In this document: positions 4,027 to 30,104 of the stretch, piece after piece
Layout of the letters: every line of letters begins with the position of its first letter
Numbering within the stretch: the stretch's first letter is position 1
DNA from: Firmicutes bacterium AM31-12AC
GTDB taxonomy: Bacteria; Bacillota; Clostridia; Lachnospirales; Lachnospiraceae
Assembly: GCA_003480425.1 (NCBI GenBank)
Contig: QUJA01000031.1
Coordinates: forward strand, 1 to 31,134
DNA length: 31,134 nucleotides
Reading direction: 5' to 3'
Made by a program: the position numbers and the translations under genes
Notes under the pieces: model-generated
Seen by the model: the letters and a program-made list of their open reading frames with translations, nothing else
Told to the model about the DNA's origin: nothing
The model's database searches: none

Positions 4027-4276
4027 GAAACAAAGGTTTATGAAAGAAAAGAATGGAACAGAAATATGCACGCTGAAAAATGGCGAAAAAGATAATATGA
4101 GGATATCAAACATAATAAAGGAGGGTAGGAAGAATAAGTGAATAGCAACATTGCTAAAGATGGGAAAGTCGGACGAAATGAAAAGTTCTATTTTTGATAA
4201 AAGAATATAATCTGTCAGTCATATTTTATTTAAAAATAGACTCTTGAAAATTCGAACGAAGAAAGGAAGGGAAACA
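4027..4276 (+). promoter_or_regulatory. Leader/promoter region of the GPH symporter gene
   Basis: About 250 bases without a convincing gene. TATAAT at 4206-4211 is a good -10 box about 66 bases before the start codon, but no clear -35 lies 16-18 bases upstream. This could mean dependence on an activator such as the AraC proteins nearby (inference). An AAGGAGGG ribosome-binding-like sequence near 4120 precedes only a ~19-codon frame from GTG 4138, which is too short to call. Confidence 0.35.
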
Positions 4277-5563
4277 ATGGAAAAACTGAAAGGAAAAGAT
4301 TATTTCTCATTTGGAATTGGAAACGTGGCATCCCAATTATCATGGACAATGGTAAGTTCGTATCTGACATTATTTTACACCGATGTATTTGGATTGCAGG
4401 CAGGAGCTGTTGCAATATTGTTTTTGGTAGCAAGAATATGGGATGGAATTAATGACCCGATGATGGGTGCGATTATGGAGCATACACATACAAAATACGG
4501 AAGATTCCGTCCTTATATTGCAATCGGTGCTCCGTTGTTGGTTGTATTTACAATTTTAACATTTAGTGTACCAGGTTTTGGTAGTGTGGGAAATCTGATT
4601 TATGCTTACATTACATATATCGGACTGGGAATGGTTTATACAATGACGAATGTGCCATACCTTGCATTGCCAGCAGTTATGTCAAATGATCCGAAAGAAG
4701 TGAATAAGTTAAACACAGCACAAATGATGGGAATGGTAATTGGTATGATTGCTTTACAGTTATGTACATTACCATTAGTAAATTATTTTGAAGGTATCTG
4801 GCCGGGAAGAGGATATCAGATTACAGCAGGAGCATATGCAATTGTTGCATTACCACTTTTCTGGTTCTGTGCGAAAAACTGTAAAGAGAGAATTACAGTA
4901 AAGAAAGAAGAGCAGACTTCTACAAAAGAATCATTAAAATATGTGCTGAAAGATCGCAATGCTATGTCTGTTATTGCATACACAACATTGAATATGATTG
5001 GAATGATGGGAAGAATTGGATGTGCAACATACTTTTACATTTATGTTGTTCAAAACTTTGCTTTAATTACTGTGTTTATGATGATGCCAATGTTTGTAGG
5101 TGCAATCGTAATGCCTTTTGGACCAAAAGTGATTGATAAACTTGGAAGAAAGAAAACATTGTATGTAGCTCTGATTTTTCAAACAGTAGGATGCCTTATG
5201 ATGTTCTTTGGACCTTATACAAATATTCCGTATTTGCTGCTGGCACATGTTGTATATGGAATCGGATATATTGGTGGAGCGTGTGGAAGTTCAATGTTAG
5301 TTGATGTAGTCACAGATATTCATGATAGAACAGGTGCAAGACCGGATGGTATATTATTTTCAATGAACAGTCTGGCAGGAAAGATTGGGCAAGCAATTGG
5401 TTCTGCACTTGGAATTGCTATTATTGGATGGTTTGGATATGTAGCTGGAAAAGACATTACAAATGAAGTCAGAAACGGAATTCAAATTGGTGTAAACTTA
5501 ATGCCGGCAATTGTATATGTATTAGCACTGATACCGGTAGCTATGTACAAGCTGGAAGACTAA
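4277..5563 (+). CDS. GPH-family glycoside/sugar:cation symporter (MFS superfamily)
   Basis: A polytopic carrier of 428 aa resembling MelB/XynP-type glycoside-pentoside-hexuronide:cation symporters. Near the N-terminus, FSFGIGNVASQLSWTMVSSY is followed by FYTDVFGL, then ARIWDGINDPMMG and the loop TKYGRFRPY, all hallmark GPH positions. About 12 membrane segments are predicted. The start is ATG 4277, which has AAGGAAGGG just upstream; an earlier in-frame codon at 4244 has no ribosome binding site. The C-terminus stops soon after the last membrane helix (YKLED), so it is shorter than many homologues by a few dozen residues. It stands alone between two terminators and directly precedes the deglycosidase operon, so uptake of a glycoside for that pathway is the likely role; the substrate is unknown. 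Confidence 0.88.
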   Translation: MEKLKGKDYFSFGIGNVASQLSWTMVSSYLTLFYTDVFGLQAGAVAILFLVARIWDGINDPMMGAIMEHTHTKYGRFRPYIAIGAPLLVVFTILTFSVPGFGSVGNLIYAYITYIGLGMVYTMTNVPYLALPAVMSNDPKEVNKLNTAQMMGMVIGMIALQLCTLPLVNYFEGIWPGRGYQITAGAYAIVALPLFWFCAKNCKERITVKKEEQTSTKESLKYVLKDRNAMSVIAYTTLNMIGMMGRIGCATYFYIYVVQNFALITVFMMMPMFVGAIVMPFGPKVIDKLGRKKTLYVALIFQTVGCLMMFFGPYTNIPYLLLAHVVYGIGYIGGACGSSMLVDVVTDIHDRTGARPDGILFSMNSLAGKIGQAIGSALGIAIIGWFGYVAGKDITNEVRNGIQIGVNLMPAIVYVLALIPVAMYKLED

Positions 5564-5580
5564 AGAAAGCGAACGAAAGA

Positions 5581-5625
5581 AAAAAGAAGACAAAAAAGAT
5601 ATATCTTTTTTTGTCCTCTTTTTTT
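5581..5625 (+). terminator. Rho-independent terminator after the GPH symporter
   Basis: An inverted repeat centred on GATATATC (near 5598-5605) pairs GAAGACAAAAAA with TTTTTTTGTCCTC, followed by a run of T (5619-5625). It begins 17 bases after the stop codon. Confidence 0.75.
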
Positions 5626-5699
5626 GTACAAAAAGAAAGAGTCCAAATACTGTATGAAATTAGGTTAATTTTGCGAAAGCACGCCGGAAATATATTTTA

Positions 5700-5747: not shown

Positions 5748-6650
5748 ATGAAATTAGGATTTGTAAGTGCAATTCTTGATACTTGGAGTTATGAAGAAAT
5801 GATGGATTTTGCATCAGATCATGGGTTTGAATGCGTAGAAATTGCCTGCTGGCCACAAGGTAAAGCAGAGAGAAGATACGCAGGAGTAAGTCATATAGAT
5901 GTAGATAAAGTTCTTGCAGACGATGAGTATGCAAAACATATTCTTGACTACAGTAAAGAGAAAAGCGTAGAAATTTCTTCTCTTGCATTTTATCCAAACA
6001 CAATGGATGGAGATTTAGAAAAGAGAGCTTCTGTAGTAGAACATTTGAAAAATGTAATCCGTGCAAGCCATAAGCTTGGCATTGGTATGGTTACAACATT
6101 TATCGGAAGAGATCAGACAAAGAATATCGAAGAAAATCTGGAGCTTGTAAAAGAAGTTTGGCCACCGATTATCAAACTTGCAGAGGAAGAAAATGTAAAA
6201 ATAGCAATCGAAAACTGCCCAATGTTGTTTGGACCAGACCAGTGGCCGGGCGGACAAAATTTAATGACAACACCGGCTATATGGAGAAAAGTATTTGCAA
6301 TTCTTGATAGCGATAATCTGGGAATCAATTACGATCCATCACATTTTGTATGGCAGATGATCGATTATATTAAACCGATTTATGAATTCAAAGATAAAAT
6401 TTTCCATGTTCATTACAAAGATATTAAGCTTTACAATGACCGTTTGAATGATTGCGGAATTATGGCATATCCACTTGATTTTATGTCACCAAAGCTTCCG
6501 GGACTGGGAGATGTGCGATGGGATAAATATGTATCAGCACTTACAGACATTGGATACGACGGATATACATGTATTGAAGTGGAAGATAAAGCTTTTGAAG
6601 GAAGTAAAGAAAAAGTAGAGCAGTCTCTTGTTTTAAGCCAGAGATACTAA
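5748..6650 (+). CDS. Sugar phosphate isomerase/epimerase-like TIM-barrel enzyme
   Basis: A 300-aa protein of the xylose isomerase-like TIM-barrel superfamily. The probable metal ligands appear in order: Glu in IAIENCP (~residue 150), Asp in NYDPSHF, His in FHVHYKD and Glu in CIEVED near the C-terminus. This is the divalent-metal site of IolE/YcjR-type enzymes. Relatives act on 3-keto sugars or hydrate keto-glucals, so here it may convert the enone or keto sugar released by C-glycoside cleavage (inference from context). The start ATG 5748 has AAAAGGAGCG upstream. It is the first gene of the operon and is separated from the next by a strongly structured 172-base spacer. The exact reaction cannot be told from sequence. 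Confidence 0.88.
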   Translation: MKLGFVSAILDTWSYEEMMDFASDHGFECVEIACWPQGKAERRYAGVSHIDVDKVLADDEYAKHILDYSKEKSVEISSLAFYPNTMDGDLEKRASVVEHLKNVIRASHKLGIGMVTTFIGRDQTKNIEENLELVKEVWPPIIKLAEEENVKIAIENCPMLFGPDQWPGGQNLMTTPAIWRKVFAILDSDNLGINYDPSHFVWQMIDYIKPIYEFKDKIFHVHYKDIKLYNDRLNDCGIMAYPLDFMSPKLPGLGDVRWDKYVSALTDIGYDGYTCIEVEDKAFEGSKEKVEQSLVLSQRY

Positions 6651-6656
6651 AACAGT

Positions 6657-6720
6657 TTGTCATCTAGGAAGAAAAACAAGCGGCTGCGCAGCAGACATTT
6701 GTTTTTAACCTAGATGACAG
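6657..6720 (+). other. Long intercistronic stem-loop
   Basis: TGTCATCTAGG (6658-6668) pairs with CCTAGATGACA (6709-6719). The stem extends inward through GAAAAACAA and TTGTTTTT around a self-complementary GCTGCGCAGC. No T-run follows, so it is not a typical terminator. It may stabilise or process the operon mRNA. Confidence 0.7.
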
Positions 6721-6723
6721 CGA

Positions 6724-6774
6724 AAGAATCAAAGAGTGCGAAGCACGACAGATGCGTTAAGCATCTGGATTCTT
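6724..6774 (+). other. Branched RNA-like structure: two hairpins inside an outer stem
   Basis: AAGAATC (6724-6730) pairs with GATTCTT (6768-6774) and encloses two hairpins: GTGC-gaa-GCAC (6736-6746) and AGATGC-gttaa-GCATCT (6750-6766). It directly follows the long stem-loop at 6657-6720 and ends 49 bases before the next start codon. It could be a leader or processing element, or a small palindromic repeat; no known riboswitch class was recognised. Confidence 0.5.
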
Positions 6775-6822
6775 GAGGCTGAATAAGTGAAACAAATTAA
6801 AATATATAAAAAGGAGACTAGA

Positions 6823-7935
6823 ATGGAAAAATTAAGAATTGCAATCGTAGGTTGTGGAGGAATCGCAAATCAGAAACATATGCCATCTATCAAAGCAAAT
6901 GCAGACAAAGCTGATATGGTAGCTTTCTGTGACATCATTCCTGAGCGTGCAGAAAAAGCTGCAAAGGAATATGGTGTAGAAGGTGCTAAAGTTTACACTG
7001 ATTATAAAGAGATGCTTGCAGATACAAGCGTTGAATTTGATGTTGTACATGTATGTACACCAAATGTGGCTCACTGTCCGATTACAGTAGCTGCTTTTGA
7101 AGCTGGAAAACATGTAATGTGTGAGAAGCCAATGGCTCACAATACAGAAGATGCACGTAAAATGATTGATGCATGGAAAAAATCAGGAAAGAAATTCACA
7201 ATCGGTTATCAGAACCGTCTGCGTGATGACACTCAGACATTGCATGCATCTTGCGAGGCTGGAGAACTTGGAGAAATCTATTTTGCAAAAGCACATGCAC
7301 TTAGAAGAAGAGCTGTTCCTACTTGGGGCGTATTCCCTAATAAAGCCCTTCAGGGCGGCGGTCCTTTAATCGATATCGGAACACATGCACTTGATATTAC
7401 ACTGTGGATGATGAATAACTATGAGCCAGAATCAGTATCAGGACAGGTATTCTACAAGCTTGGACGTCAGGAAGATGGTCCTGAAGGAAATGTATTCGGA
7501 CCATGGGATCCTAAGACATTTGAAGTAGAAGACTCTGCATTCGGTCTTGTGAAAATGAAAAATGGTGCAACAATTTATCTGGAAGCATCTTGGGCACTGA
7601 ATGTACTGAAATCTATGGAAGCTTCTACAACACTTTGTGGAACAAAAGCAGGTGCTGAAATCCATCACGGCGGAAGCTACCCACAGGATGAACTGATCTA
7701 CAACACAGTAGAGCATAATCAGTTAATGGAAAAAACAATCTCACCTGCAGGTGTTGTTGATTTCTTTGAAGGCGGAGCAGCAGCAGAGGCAGTTCGTGAG
7801 CAGGAGCAGTGGCTCAATGCAATCATCAATGATACAGATCCGCTTGTAAAACCAGAGCAGGCATTTGTTGTAACACAGATTCTCGAAGGAATTTACAAAT
7901 CAGCAGAAACAGGAAAAGAAGTATTCTTTGACTAA
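6823..7935 (+). CDS. Gfo/Idh/MocA-family NAD(P)-dependent sugar dehydrogenase (DgpA-like)
   Basis: A 370-aa two-domain oxidoreductase. The N-terminal Rossmann fold has the dinucleotide motif AIVGCGGIA (~residues 6-14), and the family motif CEKPMA is at ~residue 105. The C-terminal catalytic domain carries GGGPLIDIGTHALDITLWMM with the conserved Asp/His pair. ATG 6823 is chosen because AAAGGAGA precedes it; an upstream in-frame GTG at 6787 has no such site. In the Dgp system of a gut puerarin degrader, a protein of this family oxidises the C3 hydroxyl of the C-linked glucose, making the C-C bond cleavable. Its place just before the deglycosidase subunits supports that role here. The second family member at 9577 could share or reverse the step, so assigning roles between the two is uncertain. 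Confidence 0.88.
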   Translation: MEKLRIAIVGCGGIANQKHMPSIKANADKADMVAFCDIIPERAEKAAKEYGVEGAKVYTDYKEMLADTSVEFDVVHVCTPNVAHCPITVAAFEAGKHVMCEKPMAHNTEDARKMIDAWKKSGKKFTIGYQNRLRDDTQTLHASCEAGELGEIYFAKAHALRRRAVPTWGVFPNKALQGGGPLIDIGTHALDITLWMMNNYEPESVSGQVFYKLGRQEDGPEGNVFGPWDPKTFEVEDSAFGLVKMKNGATIYLEASWALNVLKSMEASTTLCGTKAGAEIHHGGSYPQDELIYNTVEHNQLMEKTISPAGVVDFFEGGAAAEAVREQEQWLNAIINDTDPLVKPEQAFVVTQILEGIYKSAETGKEVFFD

Positions 7936-8013
7936 GATGAATATTGAGAATACCGGTATCTTTCAAGAGATATTGGCATCTCAGCTATAAGTTAGGAAAG
8001 CGAGGAGTTAAAA

Positions 8014-8409
8014 ATGGCTGGCAGACAGATTTATAATCCGGCTGGATTTAAAAATATAGAAGAAAACGGAAAGGTAACAGGTTACCAGTTCCAGTTTAAA
8101 GCACAGTATTATCGTGGAATTACATTGTCAATCGTTCGTGATATCCAGATCAATGTAGACGGAGAGGATGTTAAAAGAGAAGACATTCGTTTCACAGTAA
8201 ACGGAGAAACATTTACATTGGAAGAAATGCGTACAGTTGTAGATTCAGATTATCGTTGGGAATTTGGCGACTATGCAACAGTATCTGTGATTAAAGAAGG
8301 TGGACTTGCAAAAGGAAATCATCACATTCATGCAAGACAGATTATTGCACCGTCATATATGCCATTTCAGATTGAAGCAGATTGTGACGCAGATTTCGTG
8401 ATTGAGTAG
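8014..8409 (+). CDS. dgpB: C-glycoside deglycosidase beta subunit (DgpB-like, DUF6379)
   Basis: A 131-aa beta-rich protein matching the small subunit of C-glycoside deglycosidases. Visible family features are the opening ENGKVTGYQFQFKAQYYRG, the central VNGETFTLEEMRT, an aromatic turn (YRWEFGDYA), and the closing HARQIIAPSYMPF. In known systems this subunit packs against the TIM-barrel subunit and helps shape the active site; alone it is not a complete enzyme. The start ATG 8014 has GCGAGGAG upstream. The stop lies 13 bases before the start of the large subunit, whose ribosome binding site (GTAGGAGGAAC) overlaps this stop codon, so the two are translationally linked. A paralogue lies at 26246-26710. 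The symbol is given by similarity; the substrate is unproven. Confidence 0.82.
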   Translation: MAGRQIYNPAGFKNIEENGKVTGYQFQFKAQYYRGITLSIVRDIQINVDGEDVKREDIRFTVNGETFTLEEMRTVVDSDYRWEFGDYATVSVIKEGGLAKGNHHIHARQIIAPSYMPFQIEADCDADFVIE

Positions 8410-8422
8410 GAGGAACTTGAAG

Positions 8423-9478
8423 ATGAGTTATGATATTAAAAGAAGTGTTTCCCTGTATAGTTATCAGGATGAATATTATGATGGAAAATTGGATCTTGAG
8501 GGGTGCCTTAGAGAAACAGCAAAAACAGGAGCAACAGGTGTAGAGCTTCTTGCTGAACAGATGATCCGCAGATTCCCATTGCCGATTGAAACAGAAGAAT
8601 TCAGAGCACAGTGGTTTGGCTGGCTTAAAAAATATGGTCTTGAGCCATCATGCTATGATGCATTTTTGGAAAACAAAATTTATGACAATCGTACATTAAG
8701 TCTTGGAGAGCAGATTAATATGATGAAGAGAGATATCCGTCTCGCTTCTATGATGGGATTTCCTACACTTCGTACATTGGTTTCTACACCGATGGATGTT
8801 ATCGAAGGAAGTTTAGAGTATGCAGAAGAAAAAAATGTAAAAATCTGTCTTGAAGTACATGCACCATTTTCTTTGAACTCAGGATGGGCTGACGGATATA
8901 TGGAAATGATTAAGCGTACAGGAACAAAATTCTTCGGATTTATGCCTGATATGGGAATCTTCTGCAAGAACATCCCAGATGTTGTAAGAGATAAAGCAAG
9001 AAGAATGGGTGCATCAGAAGAATGCATTAAGATTGTGGATGATGCTTATGCACAGCGTGTTGCAAAAGGATTTACAAAGATTAAATATGATCTGAACCTT
9101 GGAAAAGCAAATATGGAATATCGTATGGCAAACGGAATGAAAGAAATGATGGATGCTATCGAAGCAGCTGGTGGAAATGATGCAGACCGCTGGTATGGAA
9201 ATGTATCGTTTACATATTCTTGGTCTGAGCCACAGGATATTATCGATAATATTGATTACATTTATCATACACATGCAAAATTCTATAATGTTCACGAAGA
9301 TTATGTGGAAACAGCAGTTGCAATTCCTGAAGTAATCGAGGCATTTAAGAAAGCTGGATATAAAGGATATTTAAGTTCAGAGTACGAAGGTGGAGAGCAT
9401 TTGAGAGATGTTGGTGTTGATAGTATCGAACAGGTACGTCGTCATCAGGAAGCTATGAGAAGAGTAATTGAAGGATAA
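8423..9478 (+). CDS. dgpC: C-glycoside deglycosidase alpha subunit (DgpC-like TIM barrel)
   Basis: A 351-aa xylose isomerase-like TIM-barrel protein, the catalytic subunit that cleaves the C-C bond of 3-keto C-glycosides by a metal-assisted elimination. The opening KRSVSLYSYQDEYY is typical of these enzymes. Probable metal ligands are Glu ~144 in CLEVHAP, Asp ~176 in MPDMGIF, His in YHTHAKFYN and Glu in SSEYEGG; the His of EVHAP is also conserved in both copies here. ATG 8423 follows GTAGGAGGAAC by a good spacing; the TTG at 8402, inside the previous gene, is unlikely. It is the partner of the adjacent small subunit. The paralogue at 25188-26243 has the same length and the same four ligands. 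Confidence 0.85.
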   Translation: MSYDIKRSVSLYSYQDEYYDGKLDLEGCLRETAKTGATGVELLAEQMIRRFPLPIETEEFRAQWFGWLKKYGLEPSCYDAFLENKIYDNRTLSLGEQINMMKRDIRLASMMGFPTLRTLVSTPMDVIEGSLEYAEEKNVKICLEVHAPFSLNSGWADGYMEMIKRTGTKFFGFMPDMGIFCKNIPDVVRDKARRMGASEECIKIVDDAYAQRVAKGFTKIKYDLNLGKANMEYRMANGMKEMMDAIEAAGGNDADRWYGNVSFTYSWSEPQDIIDNIDYIYHTHAKFYNVHEDYVETAVAIPEVIEAFKKAGYKGYLSSEYEGGEHLRDVGVDSIEQVRRHQEAMRRVIEG

Positions 9479-9493
9479 AAAAAGGCTAGATTT

Positions 9494-9529
9494 AAGATTC
9501 AGAGGAGGGAAAACCCTTGTCTGAATCTT
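9494..9529 (+). other. Intercistronic hairpin after dgpC
   Basis: AAGATTCAGA (9494-9503) pairs with TCTGAATCTT (9520-9529), and an inner AGGG-aaaa-CCCT pairs within the loop. No T-run follows, and the operon continues at 9577. This suggests an mRNA-stabilising or processing element rather than a terminator. Confidence 0.65.
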
Positions 9530-9576
9530 GGCCGTTAAGGATATTGATAATAAAAAGATAAAAATCGGAGGGATAA

Positions 9577-10635
9577 ATGATGGAAACAGTTAAATTAGGT
9601 ATTGTTGGATTTGGATTTATGGGACATTGCGATGCTGATATGATGAGTACATTTGATGATAGTGAGATTAAACTTGTAGCAGTAGCAGATACAAACCCAG
9701 AACAGCTGAAGGATGCACCAGAAGGCGTTGAAACATATAACAGTATTGAAGAAATGCTTGAAAAAGCAGATATTAATACAGTTATGGTATCTACTCCAAA
9801 CCCAAGCCATCCAGAAATGGTGAAAAAAGCTGCGGCGGCTAAGAAAAATGTAATCTGTGAGAAACCGGCAGCAATGAGTGTTGCACTTTTTGATGAAATG
9901 GTAGCTGCATGCAAAGACAACGGTGTATTATTCACTGTTCATCAGCAGAGAAGATGGGATAAAGATTATCGTATCATGAAAGAAGTATATGACAAAAACA
10001 TGGTAGGAGATATGTATGTGATTAAATCTCAGCTTTATGGTTTTAATGGAAATATGCATGACTGGCATGTATACCCAGAGATGGGTGGAGGAATGCTTTA
10101 TGATTGGGGTGTTCATTTGATTGACCAGATGCTTGATATGGTAAAATCTGAAATCGTATCCCTTTATGCAGATGTAAGAAATGTTATCAATGAAAATGTA
10201 GATGATTACTTTAATATCATTATGAAATTTAAAAATGGTGTAACAGCAGAGATTGAACTGGGAACATATTATCTGACACCAAAGCGTGCATGGTTTATCG
10301 GTGGTAATAAAGGATCTGCTATCATCGATGGATTTAATGGGGAAGGTAAGATTGTCCGTACTGCACACTTGCTTGAAAATGTACCTGGTAAAATTACAAT
10401 GACAGCAGCCGGTCCTACAAGAAGCTTTGGCCCGGCAGCACCTGGACTGCTTCAAGAAGAAGCATTGCCGGAGGTTGATGTAAATCACAGAAATTACTTT
10501 GAACATTTTGTGAAAGCATTTAATAAAGAGGAAGAAGTTATTATAAAACCAGAACAGGTTAGACGTGTGCTGTGCGTGATGGATGCAGTACGTGAGTCAG
10601 CAAAAACAGGAAAAGCAATCGCATTTGAAGCATAA
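9577..10635 (+). CDS. Gfo/Idh/MocA-family oxidoreductase, second copy in the operon
   Basis: A 352-aa NAD(P)-dependent oxidoreductase of the Gfo/Idh/MocA family. The Rossmann motif GIVGFGFMG is at residues ~8-16, CEKPAAMS at ~95, and the substrate-domain motif GGGMLYDWGVHLIDQML at ~170. Two adjacent ATG codons (9577 and 9580) are possible. GGAGGG at 9567-9572 is better spaced for 9580, so the protein may be one residue shorter. It ends the operon and is followed by a strong terminator. It is clearly distinct in sequence from the 370-aa member at 6823. A pathway of oxidation, cleavage and re-reduction needs a second dehydrogenase, for instance to reduce 3-keto-glucose back to glucose and recycle the cofactor; this division of labour is inference. 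Confidence 0.88.
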   Translation: MMETVKLGIVGFGFMGHCDADMMSTFDDSEIKLVAVADTNPEQLKDAPEGVETYNSIEEMLEKADINTVMVSTPNPSHPEMVKKAAAAKKNVICEKPAAMSVALFDEMVAACKDNGVLFTVHQQRRWDKDYRIMKEVYDKNMVGDMYVIKSQLYGFNGNMHDWHVYPEMGGGMLYDWGVHLIDQMLDMVKSEIVSLYADVRNVINENVDDYFNIIMKFKNGVTAEIELGTYYLTPKRAWFIGGNKGSAIIDGFNGEGKIVRTAHLLENVPGKITMTAAGPTRSFGPAAPGLLQEEALPEVDVNHRNYFEHFVKAFNKEEEVIIKPEQVRRVLCVMDAVRESAKTGKAIAFEA

Positions 10636-10641
10636 TACTAT

Positions 10642-10689
10642 ACAGAGAGCAAAAAAAGTATCTTCTTTTTTGCTCTCTGTAATTTTTTT
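10642..10689 (+). terminator. Rho-independent terminator of the C-glycoside operon
   Basis: ACAGAGAGCAAAAAA (10642-10656) pairs perfectly with TTTTTTGCTCTCTGT (10666-10680), with a 9-base loop and a trailing run of seven T (10683-10689). It starts 6 bases after the last gene of the operon. Confidence 0.93.
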
Positions 10690-10716
10690 GATAGAAGTAA
10701 AGACAAAAAATAATGT
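10688..10716 (+). promoter_or_regulatory. Promoter candidate of the redox operon
   Basis: TTGATA (10688-10693) and TAATGT (10711-10716) are 17 bases apart, directly after the preceding terminator and about 94 bases before the start codon at 10810. Hexamers and spacing fit a sigma-A promoter. Confidence 0.45.
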
Positions 10717-10809: not shown

Positions 10810-12261
10810 ATGGCAGATTATGAAACACAAGTAGTAGTAATTGCAGGAGGTCCATCAGGATTATCAGCAGCTGTTCAGGCAGCAGAAGACGGAGCTGAAG
10901 TTATCGTTCTTGAGAAAGCAGCAGCAGTTGGTGGAGCAGCTAACATGGGAATGGGACCACTTGGTATCGGAACAAAATATCAGAAACAGCAGATGGAAGA
11001 TGTAACAGTAGAAAAAGCATTTAACATGTTTATGGAATATACTCATTACAATGTAGATGCAAGACTTGTAAAACGTTACTTCGAACAGTCAGCAGAGACA
11101 ATTGAATGGCTGGAAGATATGGGTGTTGAATTCGAAGGTGCTTATCGTTACTTCCCAAAATCAGAGCCAACATGGCATATCGTTAAAACAGATCAGGGAA
11201 TCGGACCTAGAGCCGCATCATTCATGAACAAAGCTTTGTATGCAAGAGCTCAGGAATTAGGAGTAAAGGTACTTCTTGAGACACCTGCTAAAAAGATTAT
11301 TATGAAAGATGGAAAAGTTGCAGGTGTTCTTGCAACAGACAAAGATGGTAAAGAAATTGAAGTTGCTTGTAAAGCCGCAATTATTTGTACAGGTGGAGCA
11401 GGATGCAACAAAGAATTTATTGAAAAAGAGACAGGTTACAAACATGGTGTAGATATGTTCAACTTTGCTATTCCTGGAATGATGGGAGACGGACTTCGCA
11501 TGGCATGGGAAGCAGGGGCTGATCACCTTCCGGTAAGAATTGAGCAGGCAGCTGCAATCGAGGGTGTAGATGATCTTCCGGGAAGCGTTGGAAACATCAT
11601 GGGACAGCCAAACTTGCTTGTTAACTTACAGGGTAAACGTGTTATGAACGAAGATCATATGCAGAATACGACATTCCTTTCAAATGTGTGTTCACATCAG
11701 AAAGGTAAAGTCTGCATCAGTATTGTAGATTCTTCAATTGCAAAATACTACATGAGAAATGGTGTAGATAACGTATCTATGGTTCGTCCTGATCCAGATG
11801 TATCAGATTTCGCAGATGCAATCAAGATGGCACAGGAGAACGGAAATGAAGGTCTGTTTATCGCAGATACAATCGAAGAACTTGCAGAAATGGCAGGAAT
11901 CGATGTAGATAATCTTGTAGATACAGTAGAAGAATATAATGATTTCTGCGACAGCGTAGATGAAGAATTCTTCAAAGATAAGAGATATTTAAGACCAATC
12001 ACAAAGGCTCCGTTCTATGGTGCAAGAATCCGTCCGGGCGGATATGGAACAGTTGGTGGAATCCGTATCAATGAGAATTGCGAAGCTTGTGATAAAGACT
12101 TCGAGCCAGTTCCAGGATTGTATGCAGCAGGAGCAGATGCTTGCAACATTTACGATGACAGTTATATGTTCTTACTTCCAGGAAACTCTATGGGATTTGC
12201 TGTTAATACAGGACGTATCGCTGGTATGAGTGCTGCAGAGTATGTTGAAGATGAAGACTAA
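10810..12261 (+). CDS. FAD-dependent oxidoreductase, fumarate reductase flavoprotein-like
   Basis: A 483-aa FAD_binding_2 protein. The N-terminal nucleotide-binding region reads VVVIAGGPSGLSAAVQAAE, with the FAD ribose-binding VLEKAAAVGGAANMG next. A GG-containing middle (ICTGGAGCNKEF) and a C-terminal FAD segment (GLYAAGADACN, then GNSMGFAVNTGRIAG) follow. The RIRPGGYGTVGGIRI segment resembles the substrate-side region of fumarate, urocanate and 3-oxosteroid reductases, which add hydride to or remove it from activated C=C bonds. ATG 10810 has GTGAGGA upstream; an extension to 10738 lacks a site. It has no signal peptide or heme motif, so a cytoplasmic partner such as the Fe-S proteins at 15454-18772 would supply electrons. 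Reduction of an aglycone double bond is a plausible but unproven role. Confidence 0.85.
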   Translation: MADYETQVVVIAGGPSGLSAAVQAAEDGAEVIVLEKAAAVGGAANMGMGPLGIGTKYQKQQMEDVTVEKAFNMFMEYTHYNVDARLVKRYFEQSAETIEWLEDMGVEFEGAYRYFPKSEPTWHIVKTDQGIGPRAASFMNKALYARAQELGVKVLLETPAKKIIMKDGKVAGVLATDKDGKEIEVACKAAIICTGGAGCNKEFIEKETGYKHGVDMFNFAIPGMMGDGLRMAWEAGADHLPVRIEQAAAIEGVDDLPGSVGNIMGQPNLLVNLQGKRVMNEDHMQNTTFLSNVCSHQKGKVCISIVDSSIAKYYMRNGVDNVSMVRPDPDVSDFADAIKMAQENGNEGLFIADTIEELAEMAGIDVDNLVDTVEEYNDFCDSVDEEFFKDKRYLRPITKAPFYGARIRPGGYGTVGGIRINENCEACDKDFEPVPGLYAAGADACNIYDDSYMFLLPGNSMGFAVNTGRIAGMSAAEYVEDED

Positions 12262-14430: not shown

Positions 14431-15366
14431 ATGAAAAAATATGGATTTGGTGTTGATATCGGAGGAACAACATGTAAGATTGGTCTTTTTGATATGAACG
14501 GAACAATTTTAGAAAAATGGGAAATTAAGACAAATACAGAAAATCATGGCGCAGCAATTCTAGATGATGTTGCAGCAGCTGTGTTAGATAAGATGAAAGA
14601 AAAGGAAATCACAAAAGAGGATGTTCAGGGAATCGGACTTGGAGTTCCGGGACCGGTTGACAGTGAAGGAACAGTTCATAAATGTGTTAATCTTGGATGG
14701 GATGTCATCAATGTAGAAAAGGCTTTAAATGAGAAGACAGGTCTCCTTGTAAAAGCAGGAAATGATGCAAATGTAGCAGCCCTTGGTGAGATGTGGCAGG
14801 GCGGTGGAAAAGGCCATCAGAATGTCATTATGGTGACACTCGGAACCGGTGTCGGTGGCGGCATTATCGTAGATGGTAAGATTATCGCAGGTTCTCATGG
14901 AGCCGGCGGAGAACTTGGACATATTCATATGAATGATGATGAGACAGATACTTGCGGATGCGGAAATAAGGGATGTCTGGAGCAGTATGCATCTGCAACC
15001 GGAATTGTCCGTATGGCGAAGAAAAAACTTGCAACAGAGACACGTGCTACAAAATTAACAACATTTGATCCTTTGACAGCAAAAGATATTTTTGATGTCG
15101 CAAAAGAGAATGATGAAGTAGCATTGGAACTGGTTGACGTACTTTGCACAATGCTTGGAACAGCTCTGGCAAATGTCGCAGCAGTGGTAGATCCTGAAAT
15201 CTTCGTTATCGGCGGTGGTGTATCAAGAGCAGGAGATATTCTGATTCAGGGAATCCAGAAGAAATTTGAAGAGAAAGCATTTCATGCATGTCGTGGAACA
15301 GGTATTTCGCTTGCAACACTTGGAAATGATGCCGGAATGTATGGTTGTGTAAGATTGTTATTCTAA
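14431..15366 (+). CDS. glcK: ROK-family sugar kinase, probable glucokinase
   Basis: A 311-aa kinase of the ROK family. The ATP phosphate loop is GVDIGGTTCKIGLFD at residues ~6-20. The catalytic Asp lies in NDANVAALGE, and the second ATP motif is VTLGTGVGGGIIVDG. The substrate-binding HGAGGELGHI precedes the zinc site CGCGNKGCLEQ (Cys-x-Cys-Gly-x2-Gly-Cys pattern). These features fit the glucokinase branch, which phosphorylates glucose with ATP. Its place downstream of the deglycosidase operon suggests it traps the glucose recovered from the C-glycoside as glucose-6-phosphate. The start ATG 14431 lies 2 bases after the MFS stop, with AAAGGAGAATAAG as binding site. Other ROK substrates (fructose, mannose, allose-type sugars) cannot be excluded. 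Confidence 0.87.
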   Translation: MKKYGFGVDIGGTTCKIGLFDMNGTILEKWEIKTNTENHGAAILDDVAAAVLDKMKEKEITKEDVQGIGLGVPGPVDSEGTVHKCVNLGWDVINVEKALNEKTGLLVKAGNDANVAALGEMWQGGGKGHQNVIMVTLGTGVGGGIIVDGKIIAGSHGAGGELGHIHMNDDETDTCGCGNKGCLEQYASATGIVRMAKKKLATETRATKLTTFDPLTAKDIFDVAKENDEVALELVDVLCTMLGTALANVAAVVDPEIFVIGGGVSRAGDILIQGIQKKFEEKAFHACRGTGISLATLGNDAGMYGCVRLLF

Positions 15367-15453: not shown

Positions 15454-17571
15454 ATGGCAATTATTACAATTGATGGGAAAAAGATTGAAGTCCCAGAAGG
15501 TAAAAATGTGTTGGATTGTGCACTGGATGCAGGCATTTATATCCCACATCTGTGTCATCATAAAGATTTGAGCCCACTTGGTTCATGTCGTATGTGCGTA
15601 GTAGAAGTAGAAGGACAGGAAGGAGTAACAACTTCTTGTACATTGAAAGCAAAAGACGGAATGAATATCACAACAAAGAGTGATAAACTGGAGCAGCTTC
15701 GTATGCTGGCTTTGGAATTGCTCCTTGCAGGACATCCGGAAGATTGTACAACATGTCCAAAATATGGTAACTGTGAATTACAGATGTTAATTCAGTATAT
15801 CGGACCAAAGACAGGTCGTTTGAAATTACGTACAAAAGGTTTCAAACAGAATGAAGAAAATCCATTGATCATTCATGATATGAATCGTTGTGTACTTTGT
15901 GGCCGTTGTGTACGTGCATGTAACGAATTGCGTGGAGTAAAAGTACTTCAGTATCAGAAAAAAGATATGGAAACATATGTAGGAACAGTACATAACAAAC
16001 TGTTGAAAGATGCAGACTGTCGTTTCTGTCAGGCTTGTGTAGAGGTCTGTCCGACAGGTACAATCCGTGACAAACTGATGAATTCTGAGGTGAAGAAAGA
16101 GGATGCAGTCGTGCCATGTCGTCATGCATGTCCTGCACATACAGATATCCCTCGTTACATCAGACACGTGAAAAACGGAGAATATGATGAAGCTGCAGCA
16201 GTTATTCGTGAGAAAGTTCCATTCCCGAAAGCATTAGGTTATATCTGTAGCCACGTATGTGAATTACAGTGTAAGAGAAAAGAAGTAAGTGATCCAATGG
16301 CAATCCGTGACATCAAACGTTATGCAGCAGAGCATGATACAGGTGCTTACTGGAAAGGCAAAGGAAAACAGCTTGCAGATACAGGAAAGAAAGTATGTGT
16401 TGTAGGAGCAGGTCCTGCAGGTCTGACAGCAGCATATTACTTAAGAAAACAGGGACATGATGTAACATTGAAAGAAGCCCTTCCAACAGTTGGTGGTATG
16501 ATGGCTTATGGAATTCCTGCATATCGTCTTCCAAGAGAAATCATTGCTGAGGAAGCAAAAGTAATCGAAGAGCAGGGCGTTAAGATTGAAGTAAATGCAA
16601 AAGTTGAGAAACCGGTAGATCTGTTGAATGAATATGATGCAGTATTAATGACAATCGGTGGACATAAAGGTGTTCGTCTTCCAATGGAAGGTAGTGAACT
16701 TGACGGAGTTATCCTGAATGCTGACTTCTTACGTAACTGCAGCATGGGTAAAGAAACAGGCATGGGCAAACGTGTTATCGTTCTCGGTGGTGGAAACGTT
16801 GCATTTGACTGTGCAAGATCTGCAAAACGTCTTGGAGCAGAGGAGATTCATCTGGCATGTCTGGAAGCAAGAGAAGTTATGACAGCCGATGATGAAGAAA
16901 TCGAACAGGCAAAAGAAGAGGGAATCTTCGTACATCCTGCACAGACATTTGAGAGAATTACAGGAACAGATCATGTAACAGGTGTTGATTTCATGAATGT
17001 GAAATCATTTACATTTGATGAAAACCGCCGTGCAATCATTGAAAAAGAAGAAGGTTCAGAGCATCACATCGATGCAGATACAGTTATCTTTGCAGTGGGT
17101 CAGAGACCTGATATCACAGAAGAAGCAGGTCTTGAACTTGGAAGAGCAAACAGTATCGCAGTAAAAGATATTGAACATGATAAGACAACTTCTGTAGAAG
17201 GTATCTTCGCAGCAGGAGATGTTATTTACGGAACAAAATCAGTAATCATGGCTATCGAGTCAGGAAGAGAAGCAGCTTCTCAGATTGACAAGTATCTTGG
17301 CGGAGATGGAGACATTTCTGAAGTACTTGCTCCTGAGCAGAAAGCAGATCCATATATCGGACAGTGTCCTGGATTCGGATATGAAGAAAGAAAACATACA
17401 CAGGTTGATCCGGCAGAGAGCAGAAGCGATAACTTTAAACTGTTTGATCACGGAATTTGTGACGCAGATATCTGTGCAGAAGCTGGAAGATGTCTTCAGT
17501 GTGACTTACGTCTGCAGATTTCCAGACCAAGTCTCTGGGGCGATTTCGTAGAAAATAAGGAGGCTGAATAA
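15454..17571 (+). CDS. NuoG/GltD-type iron-sulfur flavoprotein, NAD(P)H-linked
   Basis: A 705-aa multi-cofactor electron-transfer protein. Residues 1-75 form a [2Fe-2S] ferredoxin domain (Cys34, 45, 48, 62). His94, Cys98, Cys101 and Cys107 form the His-Cys3 [4Fe-4S] site of NuoG and iron-only hydrogenases. Two further [4Fe-4S] motifs follow (CVLCGRCVRAC and CRFCQACVEVC). Then comes the cysteine-rich helical domain of GltD/DPYD proteins (PCRHACPAHTDIPRYI, CSHVCELQCKR). FAD binding is at VVGAGPAGLTAAYYL (~residue 316) and NAD(P) binding at VLGGGNVAFDCARSAKRLGA (~441), with the final FAD motif GIFAAGDV. It would oxidise NAD(P)H and pass electrons through clusters, or the reverse. It lies 1 base before its probable partner at 17573, so the two form a complex. 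The acceptor is unknown; the flavoprotein at 10810 is a candidate. Confidence 0.88.
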   Translation: MAIITIDGKKIEVPEGKNVLDCALDAGIYIPHLCHHKDLSPLGSCRMCVVEVEGQEGVTTSCTLKAKDGMNITTKSDKLEQLRMLALELLLAGHPEDCTTCPKYGNCELQMLIQYIGPKTGRLKLRTKGFKQNEENPLIIHDMNRCVLCGRCVRACNELRGVKVLQYQKKDMETYVGTVHNKLLKDADCRFCQACVEVCPTGTIRDKLMNSEVKKEDAVVPCRHACPAHTDIPRYIRHVKNGEYDEAAAVIREKVPFPKALGYICSHVCELQCKRKEVSDPMAIRDIKRYAAEHDTGAYWKGKGKQLADTGKKVCVVGAGPAGLTAAYYLRKQGHDVTLKEALPTVGGMMAYGIPAYRLPREIIAEEAKVIEEQGVKIEVNAKVEKPVDLLNEYDAVLMTIGGHKGVRLPMEGSELDGVILNADFLRNCSMGKETGMGKRVIVLGGGNVAFDCARSAKRLGAEEIHLACLEAREVMTADDEEIEQAKEEGIFVHPAQTFERITGTDHVTGVDFMNVKSFTFDENRRAIIEKEEGSEHHIDADTVIFAVGQRPDITEEAGLELGRANSIAVKDIEHDKTTSVEGIFAAGDVIYGTKSVIMAIESGREAASQIDKYLGGDGDISEVLAPEQKADPYIGQCPGFGYEERKHTQVDPAESRSDNFKLFDHGICDADICAEAGRCLQCDLRLQISRPSLWGDFVENKEAE

Positions 17572-17572
17572 G

Positions 17573-18772
17573 ATGAGTGCATTAGAGAACGCAAAAAATG
17601 GAAGCAGTCAGGATGTCCTGAATAAAATCCAGGAAGCAAATCTTTCTGAGTATGGTTTATGTGCACAGCCATTATTCGACCGTCTGATGGCAGCGAAAGA
17701 AGAAAGTGCAGAGGAACAGAAAGAATTAGGTATTGTAGCAGCACTGAATAATGCAGATACAGATCATGCATTACTGGCAGTTTTAAAAGAACAGCCGGAG
17801 CAGGTGATGGAAGGAATTTCCATTGCTGCTTATGCTCTGGGAACAGAGAAAAAATCATTACAGATTCCGGAAGAAGAAACAGACCTTTTCGAGAGCCTGA
17901 AAGAAACAGCAGAGAAATATGGCGTTGAGCTGGTAAGTGGTATTGTGAATGTCCGTGCAGCAAAAGGAAGCGCTGTACTTCATATCGTTACAGTGAAAAA
18001 TCTTGCCGATCTGTTTGACGGAGCTTACGAAGATGGTGTTTATGTATCAGTAAACGGAGCAGATCTTCAGAAAGTTGCAAAAGATAAAAAAATTGCAGAA
18101 CTGATTGATACAGATGATGTAAAAGCGTTATACTTTGGATATGAGTATCATACACCGGAAGCTGCTGAGACGACAGTCGGTGAAGCTGGAATCACAAACG
18201 GTGTTGTACGAGTTCTGACAAGCAAAGACTGTATCGTACAGGGAGCACAGAAAGAACTTCTTGCTTCCAGAAAGACAAGCTGTGGGAAATGTGTATTCTG
18301 CCGTGAAGGACTGATTCAGTTAGAGCATATGCAGAAAGAAATCACAGAAGGAAGAGGAAAGGTTGAATTTATCAATCTGACAAAAGAAATCGGTGAAGCA
18401 ATGTGCTACTCTACACCATGTTCTATGGGACAGGTATCAGCAAAAGCTGCCTTAAGTGCAACAGAGCTGTTCACAAAAGAATATGAAGAACATATTAAGA
18501 AGAAAAACTGCCCGGCAGGAGCTTGTACTTCTTTCGTTAACATTTACATTGATCCATCACTGTGTAATGGTTGTGGAGAATGTATGGATGTATGTCCAAA
18601 AGACTGTATCGAAGGAAAAGCAAAATACATTCATATGATCGATGATTTCGATTGTACAAAATGTGGTAAATGTATGGAAGTTTGTGATGAAGATGCTATC
18701 GTACAGACAACAGGTAAGTTACCAAAACTTCCAAACAGATTAACAAAGGTTGGTAAATTTAAGAAGAGATAA
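17573..18772 (+). CDS. NuoF-related iron-sulfur protein with a degenerate FMN/NADH site
   Basis: A 399-aa electron-transfer subunit. The C-terminal half is clear: SCGKCVFCREG followed by YSTPCSMG gives the NuoF-type [4Fe-4S] site, and two ferredoxin motifs (CNGCGECMDVCPKDC and CTKCGKCMEVCDEDA) follow at ~residues 330-385. The N-terminal half lines up with the NuoF flavin domain: EQVMEGISIAAYALG matches the normally conserved VIEGMxIAAYAIG. Yet the FMN/NADH loop, usually GRGGAGFPTG, is replaced by YGLCAQPLFDRL, and the NADEGEPG-type loop reads LNNADTDHAL. The subunit has therefore probably lost its own FMN and NADH binding and relies on the FAD/NAD(P) site of the preceding protein. Its start is 1 base after that gene's stop, with AAGGAGG upstream. 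The comparison is from memory of the family and would need an alignment. Confidence 0.82.
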   Translation: MSALENAKNGSSQDVLNKIQEANLSEYGLCAQPLFDRLMAAKEESAEEQKELGIVAALNNADTDHALLAVLKEQPEQVMEGISIAAYALGTEKKSLQIPEEETDLFESLKETAEKYGVELVSGIVNVRAAKGSAVLHIVTVKNLADLFDGAYEDGVYVSVNGADLQKVAKDKKIAELIDTDDVKALYFGYEYHTPEAAETTVGEAGITNGVVRVLTSKDCIVQGAQKELLASRKTSCGKCVFCREGLIQLEHMQKEITEGRGKVEFINLTKEIGEAMCYSTPCSMGQVSAKAALSATELFTKEYEEHIKKKNCPAGACTSFVNIYIDPSLCNGCGECMDVCPKDCIEGKAKYIHMIDDFDCTKCGKCMEVCDEDAIVQTTGKLPKLPNRLTKVGKFKKR

Positions 18773-21717: not shown

Positions 21718-21732
21718 AAAAAATCCCTTTCA

Positions 21733-25187: not shown

Positions 25188-26243
25188 TTATTCTCCAATC
25201 AATCGTGTCAACATCTCATGATGTCTTCGAACCTGTTCTACTTCATTTGGAAGGTATTCGATTCCACGATCCTGCTGATCTCGTTGTCCTTCATATTCGG
25301 AATCAATGTATCCGTCAAATCCGTGCTCTTTGAGGATACGGATCGGAGTTTCGTAATCAATAGCAAGATCTTCATAGCATCCCGGTTTTCCAGGAATCTC
25401 AGTCATGTTATAGAATTTTCCGTGGATACTCATGATATATGGAAGAATTTCTACAAGGTCATTCGGGTCAGCGGAAGATTCGTGAAGAGCCATACGTTCC
25501 AAGTTAGAACCATCGATTCCATGATTTGGATATTTCTCGTTCACAACTTTGATCATATCATTCAGGTCATATTCTTTACTGTGTGCAAGAATAAAATCAA
25601 CAGCTTCCGGAATCTCAGCATGACGTTTTACATAATCAATAGCGACCTGAGAAGGAGAGTGCTGGAAGATTCCAAAATCAGGAACCAGTCCTACATGCTT
25701 ACTTCCTGTACGCTGTGCAAGATCAATAATCTGTTCTGACATACGGAAATCAAGTGCAGCAGCCATACCGCTAGTTGGTTGTTTTCTTGCTCCTGGTCGG
25801 ATCGGAAGTGGAGCGTGGATCTCTTTTCCAATTCTGACATTGTATTTTTCAGCTGTATCCAGTGCCATCTCGATTACATCAATCGGAACAAGACAAAGTG
25901 GGCGCACATTCTGGAAACCAAGGCGCGCAGCAAGCTTGATATCATTTTTCAGACGTTCTGCAGCCTCTCGATGATTCATGATATGATCACGGAACTGGTG
26001 TACATCCAGATAAATGTCCATCGTTACCGGTTTCATTTCATAGCGTGCGATATAATTATTCCAATCAAAAATAAATTGTTCAGATGGAAATGGATAATCA
26101 CGAATAGTCGCTTCGTCAATGATCTCTACTCCGTCAGTGTGTAGATTATCATGAATTTCCCGGACCATATCTTTCCAATCCATTTGTTTAAAGAATTGTG
26201 TCTGTTGATAACTGTATAAAGATACACCACGTTTGATACCCAT
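25188..26243 (-). CDS. Second C-glycoside deglycosidase alpha subunit (DgpC-like)
   Basis: A 351-aa TIM-barrel protein, clearly related to the protein at 8423-9478 though well diverged. Both open with KRxVSLYSYQ. The same metal-ligand series appears: Glu in GKEIHAP, Asp in VPDFGIF, His in SIHGKFYNM and Glu in DSEYEG. Both end with EVQRRHxEM-type helices (here EQVRRHHEMLTRL). It would cleave the C-C bond of a 3-keto C-glycoside together with the small subunit, whose stop codon lies only 2 bases before this start. The loop after the EIHAP motif (IRPGARKQPTSG) is longer and differs from the other copy, so a different aglycone preference is plausible. A terminator follows. No dehydrogenase lies in this transcript, so it must share the one at 6823 or 9577. 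Confidence 0.84.
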   Translation of the reverse strand: MGIKRGVSLYSYQQTQFFKQMDWKDMVREIHDNLHTDGVEIIDEATIRDYPFPSEQFIFDWNNYIARYEMKPVTMDIYLDVHQFRDHIMNHREAAERLKNDIKLAARLGFQNVRPLCLVPIDVIEMALDTAEKYNVRIGKEIHAPLPIRPGARKQPTSGMAAALDFRMSEQIIDLAQRTGSKHVGLVPDFGIFQHSPSQVAIDYVKRHAEIPEAVDFILAHSKEYDLNDMIKVVNEKYPNHGIDGSNLERMALHESSADPNDLVEILPYIMSIHGKFYNMTEIPGKPGCYEDLAIDYETPIRILKEHGFDGYIDSEYEGQRDQQDRGIEYLPNEVEQVRRHHEMLTRLIGE

Positions 26244-28573: not shown

Positions 28574-28591
28574 AAGCAGTGTAGTAAATAG

Positions 28592-30093: not shown

Positions 30094-30104
30094 GAGGTAA
30101 GAGT

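What the first reader, a model, noticed from the sequence alone, without database searches (positions are those of the whole stretch)
5748..10635. Self-contained operon for cleaving C-glycosides
Seen: a TIM-barrel isomerase-like enzyme, two Gfo/Idh/MocA dehydrogenases, and a small/large subunit pair with the landmarks of DgpB/DgpC, all in one terminated unit. Established: in gut C-glycoside degraders, a Gfo/Idh/MocA enzyme oxidises C3 of the sugar and the DgpB-DgpC type complex then breaks the C-C bond. Inference: this operon releases glucose from a C-glycoside, with the first gene converting the keto-glucal or keto-sugar product. Few such loci are experimentally described and the substrate of this one is open.
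Basis: partly seen in the sequence, partly recalled or inferred. Interest (0 to 1): 0.75.

Follow-up and report, generated by a model that had tools for sequence, protein, structure and literature searches.

The report
C-glycoside-cleaving operon of gut bacteria
A gut-type bacterium carries a compact set of genes that very probably cuts glucose off carbon-linked plant glycosides, a known kind of pathway in a version whose exact substrate I found no report of.

Summary
The finding holds. The unit at 5748-10635 encodes a TIM-barrel sugar enzyme, a DgpA orthologue (252 of 362 residues identical to PUE DgpA), a CGDB (PF19906) small subunit, its TIM-barrel large subunit, and an orthologue of P581a DgpA2. 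Hairpins flank it on both sides. All seven published catalytic or metal residues of the large subunit and the small-subunit tyrosine are present.

The likely mechanism is a redox-neutral cycle: C3 oxidation, beta-elimination of the C-C bond, hydration of the keto-glucal, reduction to glucose. Published operons work this way, so this is a new member of a known kind. The hydration step rests on gene context only: the first protein is not detectably related in sequence to AtHYD, and its family also sits beside other Gfo/Idh/MocA genes.

A second CGD pair lies at 25188-26710, and a flavoprotein gene (10810-12261), with NADH-dehydrogenase-like genes further on, belongs to the conserved neighbourhood. 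Both large subunits fall in clades without any of the five solved chains put in the tree. The substrate remains open.

The parts
4244..5563 (+). GPH-type cation symporter (probable glycoside or glucose uptake); separated from the unit by a hairpin
   Evidence: TIGR00792 322 bits, cut-off 231; homologue at 45% or more in 11 of 44 loci with flanks
5572..5632 (+). terminator-like hairpin upstream of the unit
   Evidence: -15.5 kcal/mol, z -4.3, T run partly inside the stem; not listed by the consensus scan
5748..6650 (+). TIM-barrel sugar enzyme (IolE-like); proposed 2-hydroxy-3-keto-glucal hydratase
   Evidence: PF01261 125.7 bits; orthologues (62-64%) in clusters with CGD genes, Gfo genes and ROK kinases on Enterococcus and Niallia plasmids; AtHYD-like fold, but no better than epimerases
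6823..7935 (+). DgpA1: NAD-dependent C3 oxidase of the glycoside (Gfo/Idh/MocA)
   Evidence: 252 of 362 residues identical to PUE DgpA 7xr9; EKP and GTHALD motifs (their catalytic role is recalled)
8014..8409 (+). C-glycoside deglycosidase beta (small) subunit, DgpB type
   Evidence: PF19906 141.7 bits; the 8 PDB sequences hit are CGD beta chains or the fused 8qrz; Tyr33 = PuCGD Tyr39
8423..9478 (+). C-glycoside deglycosidase alpha (large) subunit, DgpC type
   Evidence: E151 H153 D183 H291 K293 E327 E329 match all seven published residues (numbering counts from base 8402); Foldseek top 16 are all CGDs
9577..10635 (+). DgpA2: second Gfo/Idh/MocA enzyme; second glycoside oxidase or 3-keto-glucose reductase
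   Evidence: 197 of 342 residues identical to P581a DgpA2 (9m37, described as an isoorientin complex)
10638..10695 (+). intrinsic-terminator-like hairpin closing the unit
   Evidence: -21.5 kcal/mol, z -5.2, T7 tail; not listed by the consensus scan
10810..12261 (+). FAD_binding_2 flavoprotein (fumarate/urocanate/vinyl phenol reductase superfamily); proposed aglycone reductase
   Evidence: PF00890 166 bits; NF053717 284 bits, under its cut-off of 600; present at 45% or more in 25 of 44 flanked loci; at 60% or more in 7 of 200 family genomes, all CGDB-positive
14431..15366 (+). ROK family protein, possible glucokinase for the released glucose
   Evidence: PF00480 239 bits; ROK genes close the homologous plasmid clusters; but a homologue in only 3 of 80 loci
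15454..18772 (+). NuoG-like and NuoF-like iron-sulphur flavoprotein genes, a possible electron supply for the flavoprotein
   Evidence: NuoG homologue in 21 of 44 flanked loci
25188..26243 (-). second CGD alpha subunit
   Evidence: all seven residues conserved (E141 H143 D189 H274 K276 E316 E318); best PDB hit 8qvc, 153.5 bits
26246..26710 (-). second CGD beta subunit
   Evidence: PF19906 127.1 bits; tyrosine conserved
27028..31013 (+). ABC transporter (solute-binding protein in two frames, two permeases), homologous to one that adjoins CGD genes in relatives
   Evidence: L022, L023 and L064

Best explanation
This is a C-glycoside deglycosylation operon of a Lachnospiraceae-type bacterium. DgpA1 (and possibly DgpA2) oxidises C3 of the glucosyl group with tightly held NAD+. 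The alpha/beta deglycosidase then uses a divalent metal and a histidine base to pull off the C2 proton and break the C-C bond by beta-elimination, with the small-subunit tyrosine helping to activate the phenolic aglycone. The products are the aglycone and 2-hydroxy-3-keto-glucal. The first gene product hydrates the glucal to 3-keto-glucose. A Gfo/Idh/MocA enzyme (DgpA2, or DgpA1 in its ping-pong half-reaction) reduces that to glucose and returns the NAD+, so the net reaction is a redox-neutral hydrolysis of a bond that ordinary glycosidases do not cut. Shown here: gene content, orthology, catalytic residues, predicted fold, synteny. Inferred from published relatives: the chemistry. Inferred from context only: the hydration step, the split of work between DgpA1 and DgpA2, and the substrate (most likely plant flavonoid or xanthone C-glucosides).
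For: DgpA1 is 70% identical to PUE DgpA. The small subunit is CGDB at 141.7 bits. All seven catalytic or metal residues are present in 79 of 82 large subunits (the window's two and all 80 loci; two of the three misses are cut-off genes), and the small-subunit tyrosine in 81 of 81 rows. The alpha model (mean pLDDT 91) matches 16 CGD chains at E 3e-34 to 1e-21 before the first isomerase at 9e-12. A CGDB gene lies next to alpha in 69 of 76 orthologous loci. The IolE-like gene is in 12 of 15 CGDB-positive against 16 of 185 other genomes of one family. Plasmid clusters in Enterococcus raffinosus and, spread over about 18 kb, in Niallia hold the same kinds of genes with ROK kinases. Published: CGD residues and mechanism (PMC8563793, sections read), the four-step scheme and the PUE operon (PMC10628242, section 7 and passages), levoglucosan LgdA/B1/B2/C (PMC7676230, Results part 1 of 2 and Discussion), DgpA ping-pong with 3-oxo-glucose (PMC11239390, passages).
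Against: No activity is shown. The first protein has no AtHYD chain among its PDB sequence hits, and its model (mean pLDDT only 78) matches AtHYD (TMq 0.65) no better than D-tagatose or D-psicose epimerases. Its orthologues also occur without any CGDB gene, beside Gfo enzymes, sugar ABC-transporter binding proteins, a ketohexokinase or a 2-hydroxyacid dehydrogenase. The DgpA2 orthologue is described as an isoorientin complex, which speaks for a second oxidase rather than a reductase. IolE, DgpA1 and DgpA2 homologues are all present in only 17 of 44 flanked loci, so the five-gene set is common but not obligatory. One locus (L006) has Lys in place of the seventh residue.
Confidence: 0.8

Rival explanations
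1. The same proteins, but the physiological substrate is a 3-keto O-glucoside or another beta-linked phenolic; C-glycoside cleavage is a side activity.
For: PuCGE eliminates 3-keto-phlorizin (an O-glucoside) at 1.25 U/mg against 0.64 for the C-glucoside 3-keto-nothofagin (PMC13273386, part 1 of 3 read). D3dgpA oxidises both C- and O-glycosides (PMC11239390, passages).
Against: O-glucosides are cut by ordinary glycosidases. The 16 nearest solved chains are titled CGD, Dgp, Dfg or AgCar proteins. The small subunit, needed for C-C cleavage of 3-keto-nothofagin by PuCGE, is kept in 69 of 76 loci, and in 5 of the other 7 the contig is cut there.
Confidence: 0.12
2. A rival for one step: the first gene is not a hydratase but an epimerase or isomerase of keto-sugars (as YcjR, IolE or IolO), and 3-keto-glucal is hydrated by the deglycosidase itself or spontaneously.
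For: Fold search ranks D-tagatose/D-psicose epimerases with or above AtHYD, and lists the 3-keto-glucoside 4-epimerase YcjR. In 15 of 15 regions examined from genomes without CGDB a Gfo gene lies beside it or one gene away. [quoted passage not shown]
Against: Association with CGDB across 200 genomes and joint plasmid clusters. LgdB2 and AtHYD, the two published hydratases, carry the same sugar phosphate isomerase annotation in operons of the same layout.
Confidence: 0.35
3. The TIM-barrel pair is a plain sugar isomerase with an accessory domain and no lyase activity.
For: The large subunit hits only the general AP_endonuc_2 family in Pfam and nothing in NCBIfam.
Against: About ten orders of magnitude separate CGD chains from isomerases in Foldseek; CGDB partner; all seven residues and the tyrosine.
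Confidence: 0.03

Closest known systems
PUE strain puerarin operon (DgpA, DgpB-DgpC)
   Same: DgpA orthologue at 70% identity; small plus TIM-barrel subunit with the same catalytic residues; same four-step logic as proposed in PMC10628242
   Different: Alpha subunit only distantly related (123 bits against 238 for the Deinococcus enzyme) and in another, long-branched group of the tree; a second CGD pair nearby
Deinococcus aerius TR0125 CGD (8qvc, 8umc)
   Same: Closest solved large subunit: 40% identity over 314 aligned residues, TMt 0.96
   Different: A Deinococcus enzyme; in D. aetherius, which has a 38% homologue of the large subunit, a GMC oxidoreductase follows the CGD genes where DgpA stands here; the alpha1 clade is separate
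P581a DgpA2 and W974-1 DgpA1 / DgpB-C sets (9m37, 9m3a, 9m3b, 9m3d)
   Same: DgpA2 orthologue (58%); these strains too have several DgpA and DgpBC versions, judging by the deposited names
   Different: Their DgpC chains are not close to either window alpha; no paper on them was found in the library
Levoglucosan pathway LgdA/B1/B2/C and A. tumefaciens AtOGE/AtHYD operon
   Same: Oxidation, elimination, hydration and reduction by two oxidoreductases and two proteins annotated as sugar phosphate isomerases
   Different: Those cut C-O bonds, with single-protein eliminases (LgdB1, AtOGE) instead of an alpha/beta pair
Catenibacillus dgpBC clusters (PMC11170127, abstract and one section read)
   Same: Lachnospiraceae with several dgpBC pairs and several dgpA genes
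   Different: There dgpA genes are separately located from dgpBC; here dgpA is adjacent

Membership tests
C-glycoside deglycosidase (DgpB/DgpC type) | CGDB (DUF6379) beta-subunit gene adjacent to a TIM-barrel alpha-subunit gene | tested here: met
   PF19906 141.7 bits; stop 8409, alpha ATG 8423; adjacent in 69 of 76 loci
C-glycoside deglycosidase (DgpB/DgpC type) | Metal ligands E147, D179, H269, K271, E305 and base/support H149/E307 (AgCGD2 numbering) | tested here: met
   E151, D183, H291, K293, E327, H153, E329; all seven in 79 of 82 rows, the misses being two truncated genes and one E-to-K
C-glycoside deglycosidase (DgpB/DgpC type) | Beta-subunit Tyr39 | tested here: met
   Tyr33; 81 of 81 rows, the window's second pair and the PuCGD reference row included
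C-glycoside deglycosidase (DgpB/DgpC type) | Fold of the alpha subunit closer to CGDs than to sugar isomerases, with a helical lid | tested here: met
   Foldseek ranks 1-16 all CGD; model helices 206-222, 233-243, 246-255, 260-271 lie where the lid is expected (that this is the lid is inference)
C-glycoside deglycosidase (DgpB/DgpC type) | Cleaves 3''-keto C-glycosides; alpha4beta4 or alpha-beta assembly | not testable with these tools
   needs purified protein
DgpA glycoside 3-oxidase | Gfo/Idh/MocA domains and orthology to PUE DgpA | tested here: met
   PF01408 and PF02894; 252 of 362 identical
DgpA glycoside 3-oxidase | Ping-pong oxidation with 3-oxo-glucose as acceptor | not testable with these tools
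   published for DgpA/D3dgpA (PMC11239390, passages)
2-hydroxy-3-keto-glucal hydratase (AtHYD/LgdB2) | Detectable sequence relation to AtHYD (8ro4) | tested here: not met
   8ro4 is not among the 3 PDB sequences at E <= 0.001
2-hydroxy-3-keto-glucal hydratase (AtHYD/LgdB2) | Same fold, preferred over other sugar TIM barrels | tested here: inconclusive
   8ro4 at rank 13, TMq 0.65, behind 2zds and epimerases; model pLDDT 78
2-hydroxy-3-keto-glucal hydratase (AtHYD/LgdB2) | Encoded with a 3-keto-glycoside eliminase and Gfo oxidoreductase | tested here: inconclusive
   Met here and on two plasmids, but the family also occurs with Gfo and no CGDB
2-hydroxy-3-keto-glucal hydratase (AtHYD/LgdB2) | Sequence relation to LgdB2 | not tested

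The most novel reading that the evidence does not exclude
The island is a complete C-glycoside-to-reduced-aglycone pathway. Beyond releasing glucose, the conserved flavoprotein (10810-12261), fed by the NuoG/NuoF-like pair, uses the freed flavonoid-type aglycone as an electron acceptor, so that these Lachnospiraceae gain both sugar and an electron sink from plant C-glycosides. The two large subunits represent two enzyme clades of untested specificity.
Probability: 0.2. Interest if true: 0.6.

Novelty: new member of a known kind. Interest (0 to 1): 0.36.

Why it matters
C-glycosides such as vitexin, orientin and mangiferin resist ordinary glycosidases, so which gut bacteria open them decides whether people and grazing animals get the free aglycone. 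This version of the large subunit lies in many gut and rumen Lachnospiraceae, including named strains (Mediterraneibacter glycyrrhizinilyticus, Faecalicatena, Schaedlerella, Pseudobutyrivibrio, Lacrimispora; record titles). The large subunits form clades without any of the five solved chains compared. The question is directly testable with named strains.

Tried and rejected
Plain-isomerase reading: rejected on fold search and residues.

Hydratase identity by fold: tried, did not discriminate. A test of whether the IolE-like gene is exclusive to CGD genomes was negative: 16 of 28 positive genomes have no CGDB match over the cut-off.

Consensus scan for promoters and terminators: promoters 49 against 45.2 expected, so no information; 11 terminator-like sites against 6.0 expected, neither flanking hairpin among them; the hairpins were found by reading the sequence and folding it.

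Rfam search of the window at gathering threshold: no match, so the folded gap at 6651-6822 stays unexplained. Paper searches for the P581a/W974-1 proteins and for the codes 8qvc, 8qrz, 8umc, 8un2, 8qvd found nothing relevant; the titles came from the fold search. A search for C-glycoside terms with the named genera listed no such paper in its 12 rows; 595 papers held two of the six terms and I saw only those 12 listings. PMC10772555 was searched for operon terms and held none; PMC12101588 was seen in passages and PMC12724307 in outline and abstract.

C6 or C8 preference could not be inferred: the window alpha subunits are too far from the characterised ones. A broad protein search with the first gene gave 7996 relatives, 120 listed, with names no more specific than sugar phosphate isomerase/epimerase in the rows seen.

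Counts with dropped rows: one search printed 11 loci with the five-gene order; by the coordinates two of them (L015, L026) have other genes between, leaving 9. G020 (below the CGDB cut-off) was left out of the 2x2 table. Of the 16 genomes with the IolE-like gene but no CGDB I looked at 14 (15 regions); G058 and G088 were left out as short contigs. One search scored only the best 7 candidates a genome. The alpha tree lacks 9m3a and 7dnm, whose sequences no call had printed, and carries warnings of long branches (PUE, Eubacterium, Microbacterium and Enterococcus rows) and of one row cut to a partial codon.


Full report
OBSERVATION. The five genes are real and intact except for the last residues of the first. 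Pfam places 5748-6650 and 8423-9478 in AP_endonuc_2 TIM barrels, 6823-7935 and 9577-10635 in Gfo/Idh/MocA, and 8014-8409 in CGDB, the C-glycoside deglycosidase beta subunit, at 141.7 bits against a cut-off of 27.6. Ribosome sites precede all five starts. Hairpins stand after the upstream symporter (z -4.3) and after the last gene (z -5.2, seven T), although the consensus scan listed neither. The co-location is not chance: in 76 of 80 loci kept from a genome scan (83 found) the large subunit is at least 60% identical, a CGDB gene lies directly upstream in 69 of those 76, and in 5 of the other 7 the contig begins within 90 bases of the match; the last two (L053, L059) have a partial match behind a DgpA2-like gene. 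Among the 44 loci with 5 kb or more on both sides, homologues at 45% or better were found for DgpA1 in 29, DgpA2 in 35, the IolE-like gene in 18, all three in 17, and the flavoprotein in 25. The contiguous order IolE-DgpA1-beta-alpha-DgpA2 occurs in 9 loci by the coordinates.

WHAT IT IS. DgpA1 is 252 of 362 residues identical to DgpA of strain PUE, and DgpA2 197 of 342 to the P581a protein deposited as DgpA2 and described as an isoorientin complex. The small subunit's 8 PDB hits are CGD beta chains or the fused 8qrz; the large subunit's 8 PDB hits are CGD alpha chains, again with the fused 8qrz (titles). Mapping the residues whose mutation cripples PuCGD and MiCGD (PMC8563793; Results parts 1 and 2 of 3, the section on catalytic residues and the Discussion read) gives E151, H153, D183, H291, K293, E327 and E329. 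All seven are present in 79 of 82 large subunits, that is the window's two and all 80 loci; the misses are two genes cut by contig ends (L074, L075) and a Lys at the last position in L006. The small-subunit tyrosine that PMC13273386 (part 1 of 3 read) names as mechanistically critical is Tyr33, kept in 81 of 81 rows. A model from 20 sequences has mean pLDDT 91, and Foldseek returns 16 CGD chains (E 3e-34 to 1e-21) before the first isomerase (9e-12).

HOW IT WORKS. Published work gives the steps. Gfo/Idh/MocA DgpA oxidises C3 and is turned over by 3-oxo-glucose in a ping-pong fashion (PMC11239390, passages). The metal and histidine of the alpha subunit drive beta-elimination to the aglycone and 1,5-anhydro-erythro-hex-1-en-3-ulose. 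The glucal is hydrated and reduced to glucose in the Bacillus smithii pathway and, on preliminary evidence, in A. tumefaciens; PMC10628242 (section 7) predicts the same for the PUE operon. Here the IolE-like enzyme is the candidate hydratase. For: it is present in 12 of 15 CGDB-positive and 16 of 185 other genomes in a 200-genome sample of one family (Fisher p 1.8e-9; 3.5e-7 without the three genomes already known from loci; kinship not controlled). It shares a cluster with two Gfo genes, a CGD pair and a ROK kinase on an Enterococcus raffinosus plasmid (62% identity), and lies with a TIM barrel, a Gfo gene and a ROK glucokinase on a Niallia plasmid that carries a CGD pair with two Gfo genes some 10-14 kb away (64%). 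Against: no AtHYD relation by sequence, no preference for AtHYD by fold, and a general habit of sitting by Gfo genes: in 15 of 15 regions from 14 genomes without CGDB a Gfo homologue lies beside it (12) or one gene away (3), once with a ketohexokinase and once with a 2-hydroxyacid dehydrogenase between, though in one region (L096) a second TIM barrel adjoins and in another (L098) a ROK homologue, as in the levoglucosan-type layout. An A. rubi homologue (51%) lies by an ABC transporter with no Gfo gene annotated within 8 kb. I put hydratase at about 0.6. Whether DgpA2 is the reductase or a second oxidase is open; the isoorientin structure favours oxidase.

A second CGD pair lies at 25188-26710 (minus strand; CGDB 127.1 bits), again with all seven residues and the tyrosine. 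In L022 and L023 homologues of both pairs stand in one cluster behind an ABC transporter related to the one at 27028-31013, with DgpA2 and DgpA1. The flavoprotein at 10810-12261 has its homologue next after DgpA2 in 7 of the 9 contiguous loci, and the contig ends there in the other 2. At 60% identity or more it is found in 7 of 200 family genomes, all CGDB-positive; at 49-52% in 8 more, of which 2 are CGDB-positive. With the NuoG/NuoF-like pair it suggests an aglycone-reducing step, which is inference only. The ROK gene at 14431 would phosphorylate the glucose, but a homologue lies in only 3 of 80 loci.

PLACE AMONG KNOWN SYSTEMS. The nearest solved large subunit is that of Deinococcus aerius (40% over 314 residues). 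In a tree of 26 rows the alpha1 group (13 rows, support 100/100) and the alpha2 group (4 rows, 100/99) each contain none of the five solved chains included. The relation of alpha1 to the Deinococcus and PUE/Eubacterium groups is unresolved, several long branches make deep joins unsure, and two solved chains (9m3a, 7dnm) and the assayed enzymes without structures were not in the tree. So this is a new member of a known kind, in groups whose substrate I found no report of within the ten paper searches made. The source organism is not held; best identities of 88-95% of the core proteins to Lachnospiraceae and 38% GC point to that family.

Noticed in passing
window 25188-26710: Second, divergent C-glycoside deglycosidase pair on the minus strand, with all catalytic residues; closest relatives among the loci (80-84%) in L022, L023 and L066.
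   Followed up: yes
window 10810-12261 and 15454-18772: Fumarate-reductase-superfamily flavoprotein and NuoG/NuoF-like genes recur beside CGD operons; the function is unknown to me, possibly aglycone reduction.
   Followed up: partly
window 6640-6660, 13240-14400, 19345-24164, 27028-28631: Several genes are split across frames compared with relatives: tail of the first gene (6 residues shorter than relatives), an MFS transporter (three pieces), two AraC-GH39 genes, one solute-binding protein. Either sequencing indels or decay (for the AraC-GH39 genes).
   Followed up: partly
window 6650-6790: Strongly folded gap between the first gene and dgpA (-52.3 kcal/mol, z -6.95), no T run and no Rfam match; perhaps a processing or mobile repeat element.
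   Followed up: partly
window 143-2320 and 19345-24164: AraC regulators with GH39-like domains; the first has a homologue (E <= 1e-10, often weak) in 39 of the 80 CGD loci, so these may be the sensors of such islands.
   Followed up: no
L082 8326-13865: A CGD operon with two Gfo genes, IolE-like gene and ROK kinase on a 985 kb Enterococcus raffinosus plasmid from human faeces.
   Followed up: partly
L059 and L053 around 9400-10960: Large-subunit match begins inside the gene (query residue 82 and residue 39) right behind a DgpA2-like gene, with no small subunit found; possibly a deletion in Eubacterium plexicaudatum ASF492 and another genome, or an assembly fault.
   Followed up: no
L084-L098: Orthologues of the first gene (46-81%) sit by Gfo/Idh/MocA genes in genomes without CGDB, suggesting a wider family of keto-sugar pathways.
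   Followed up: partly
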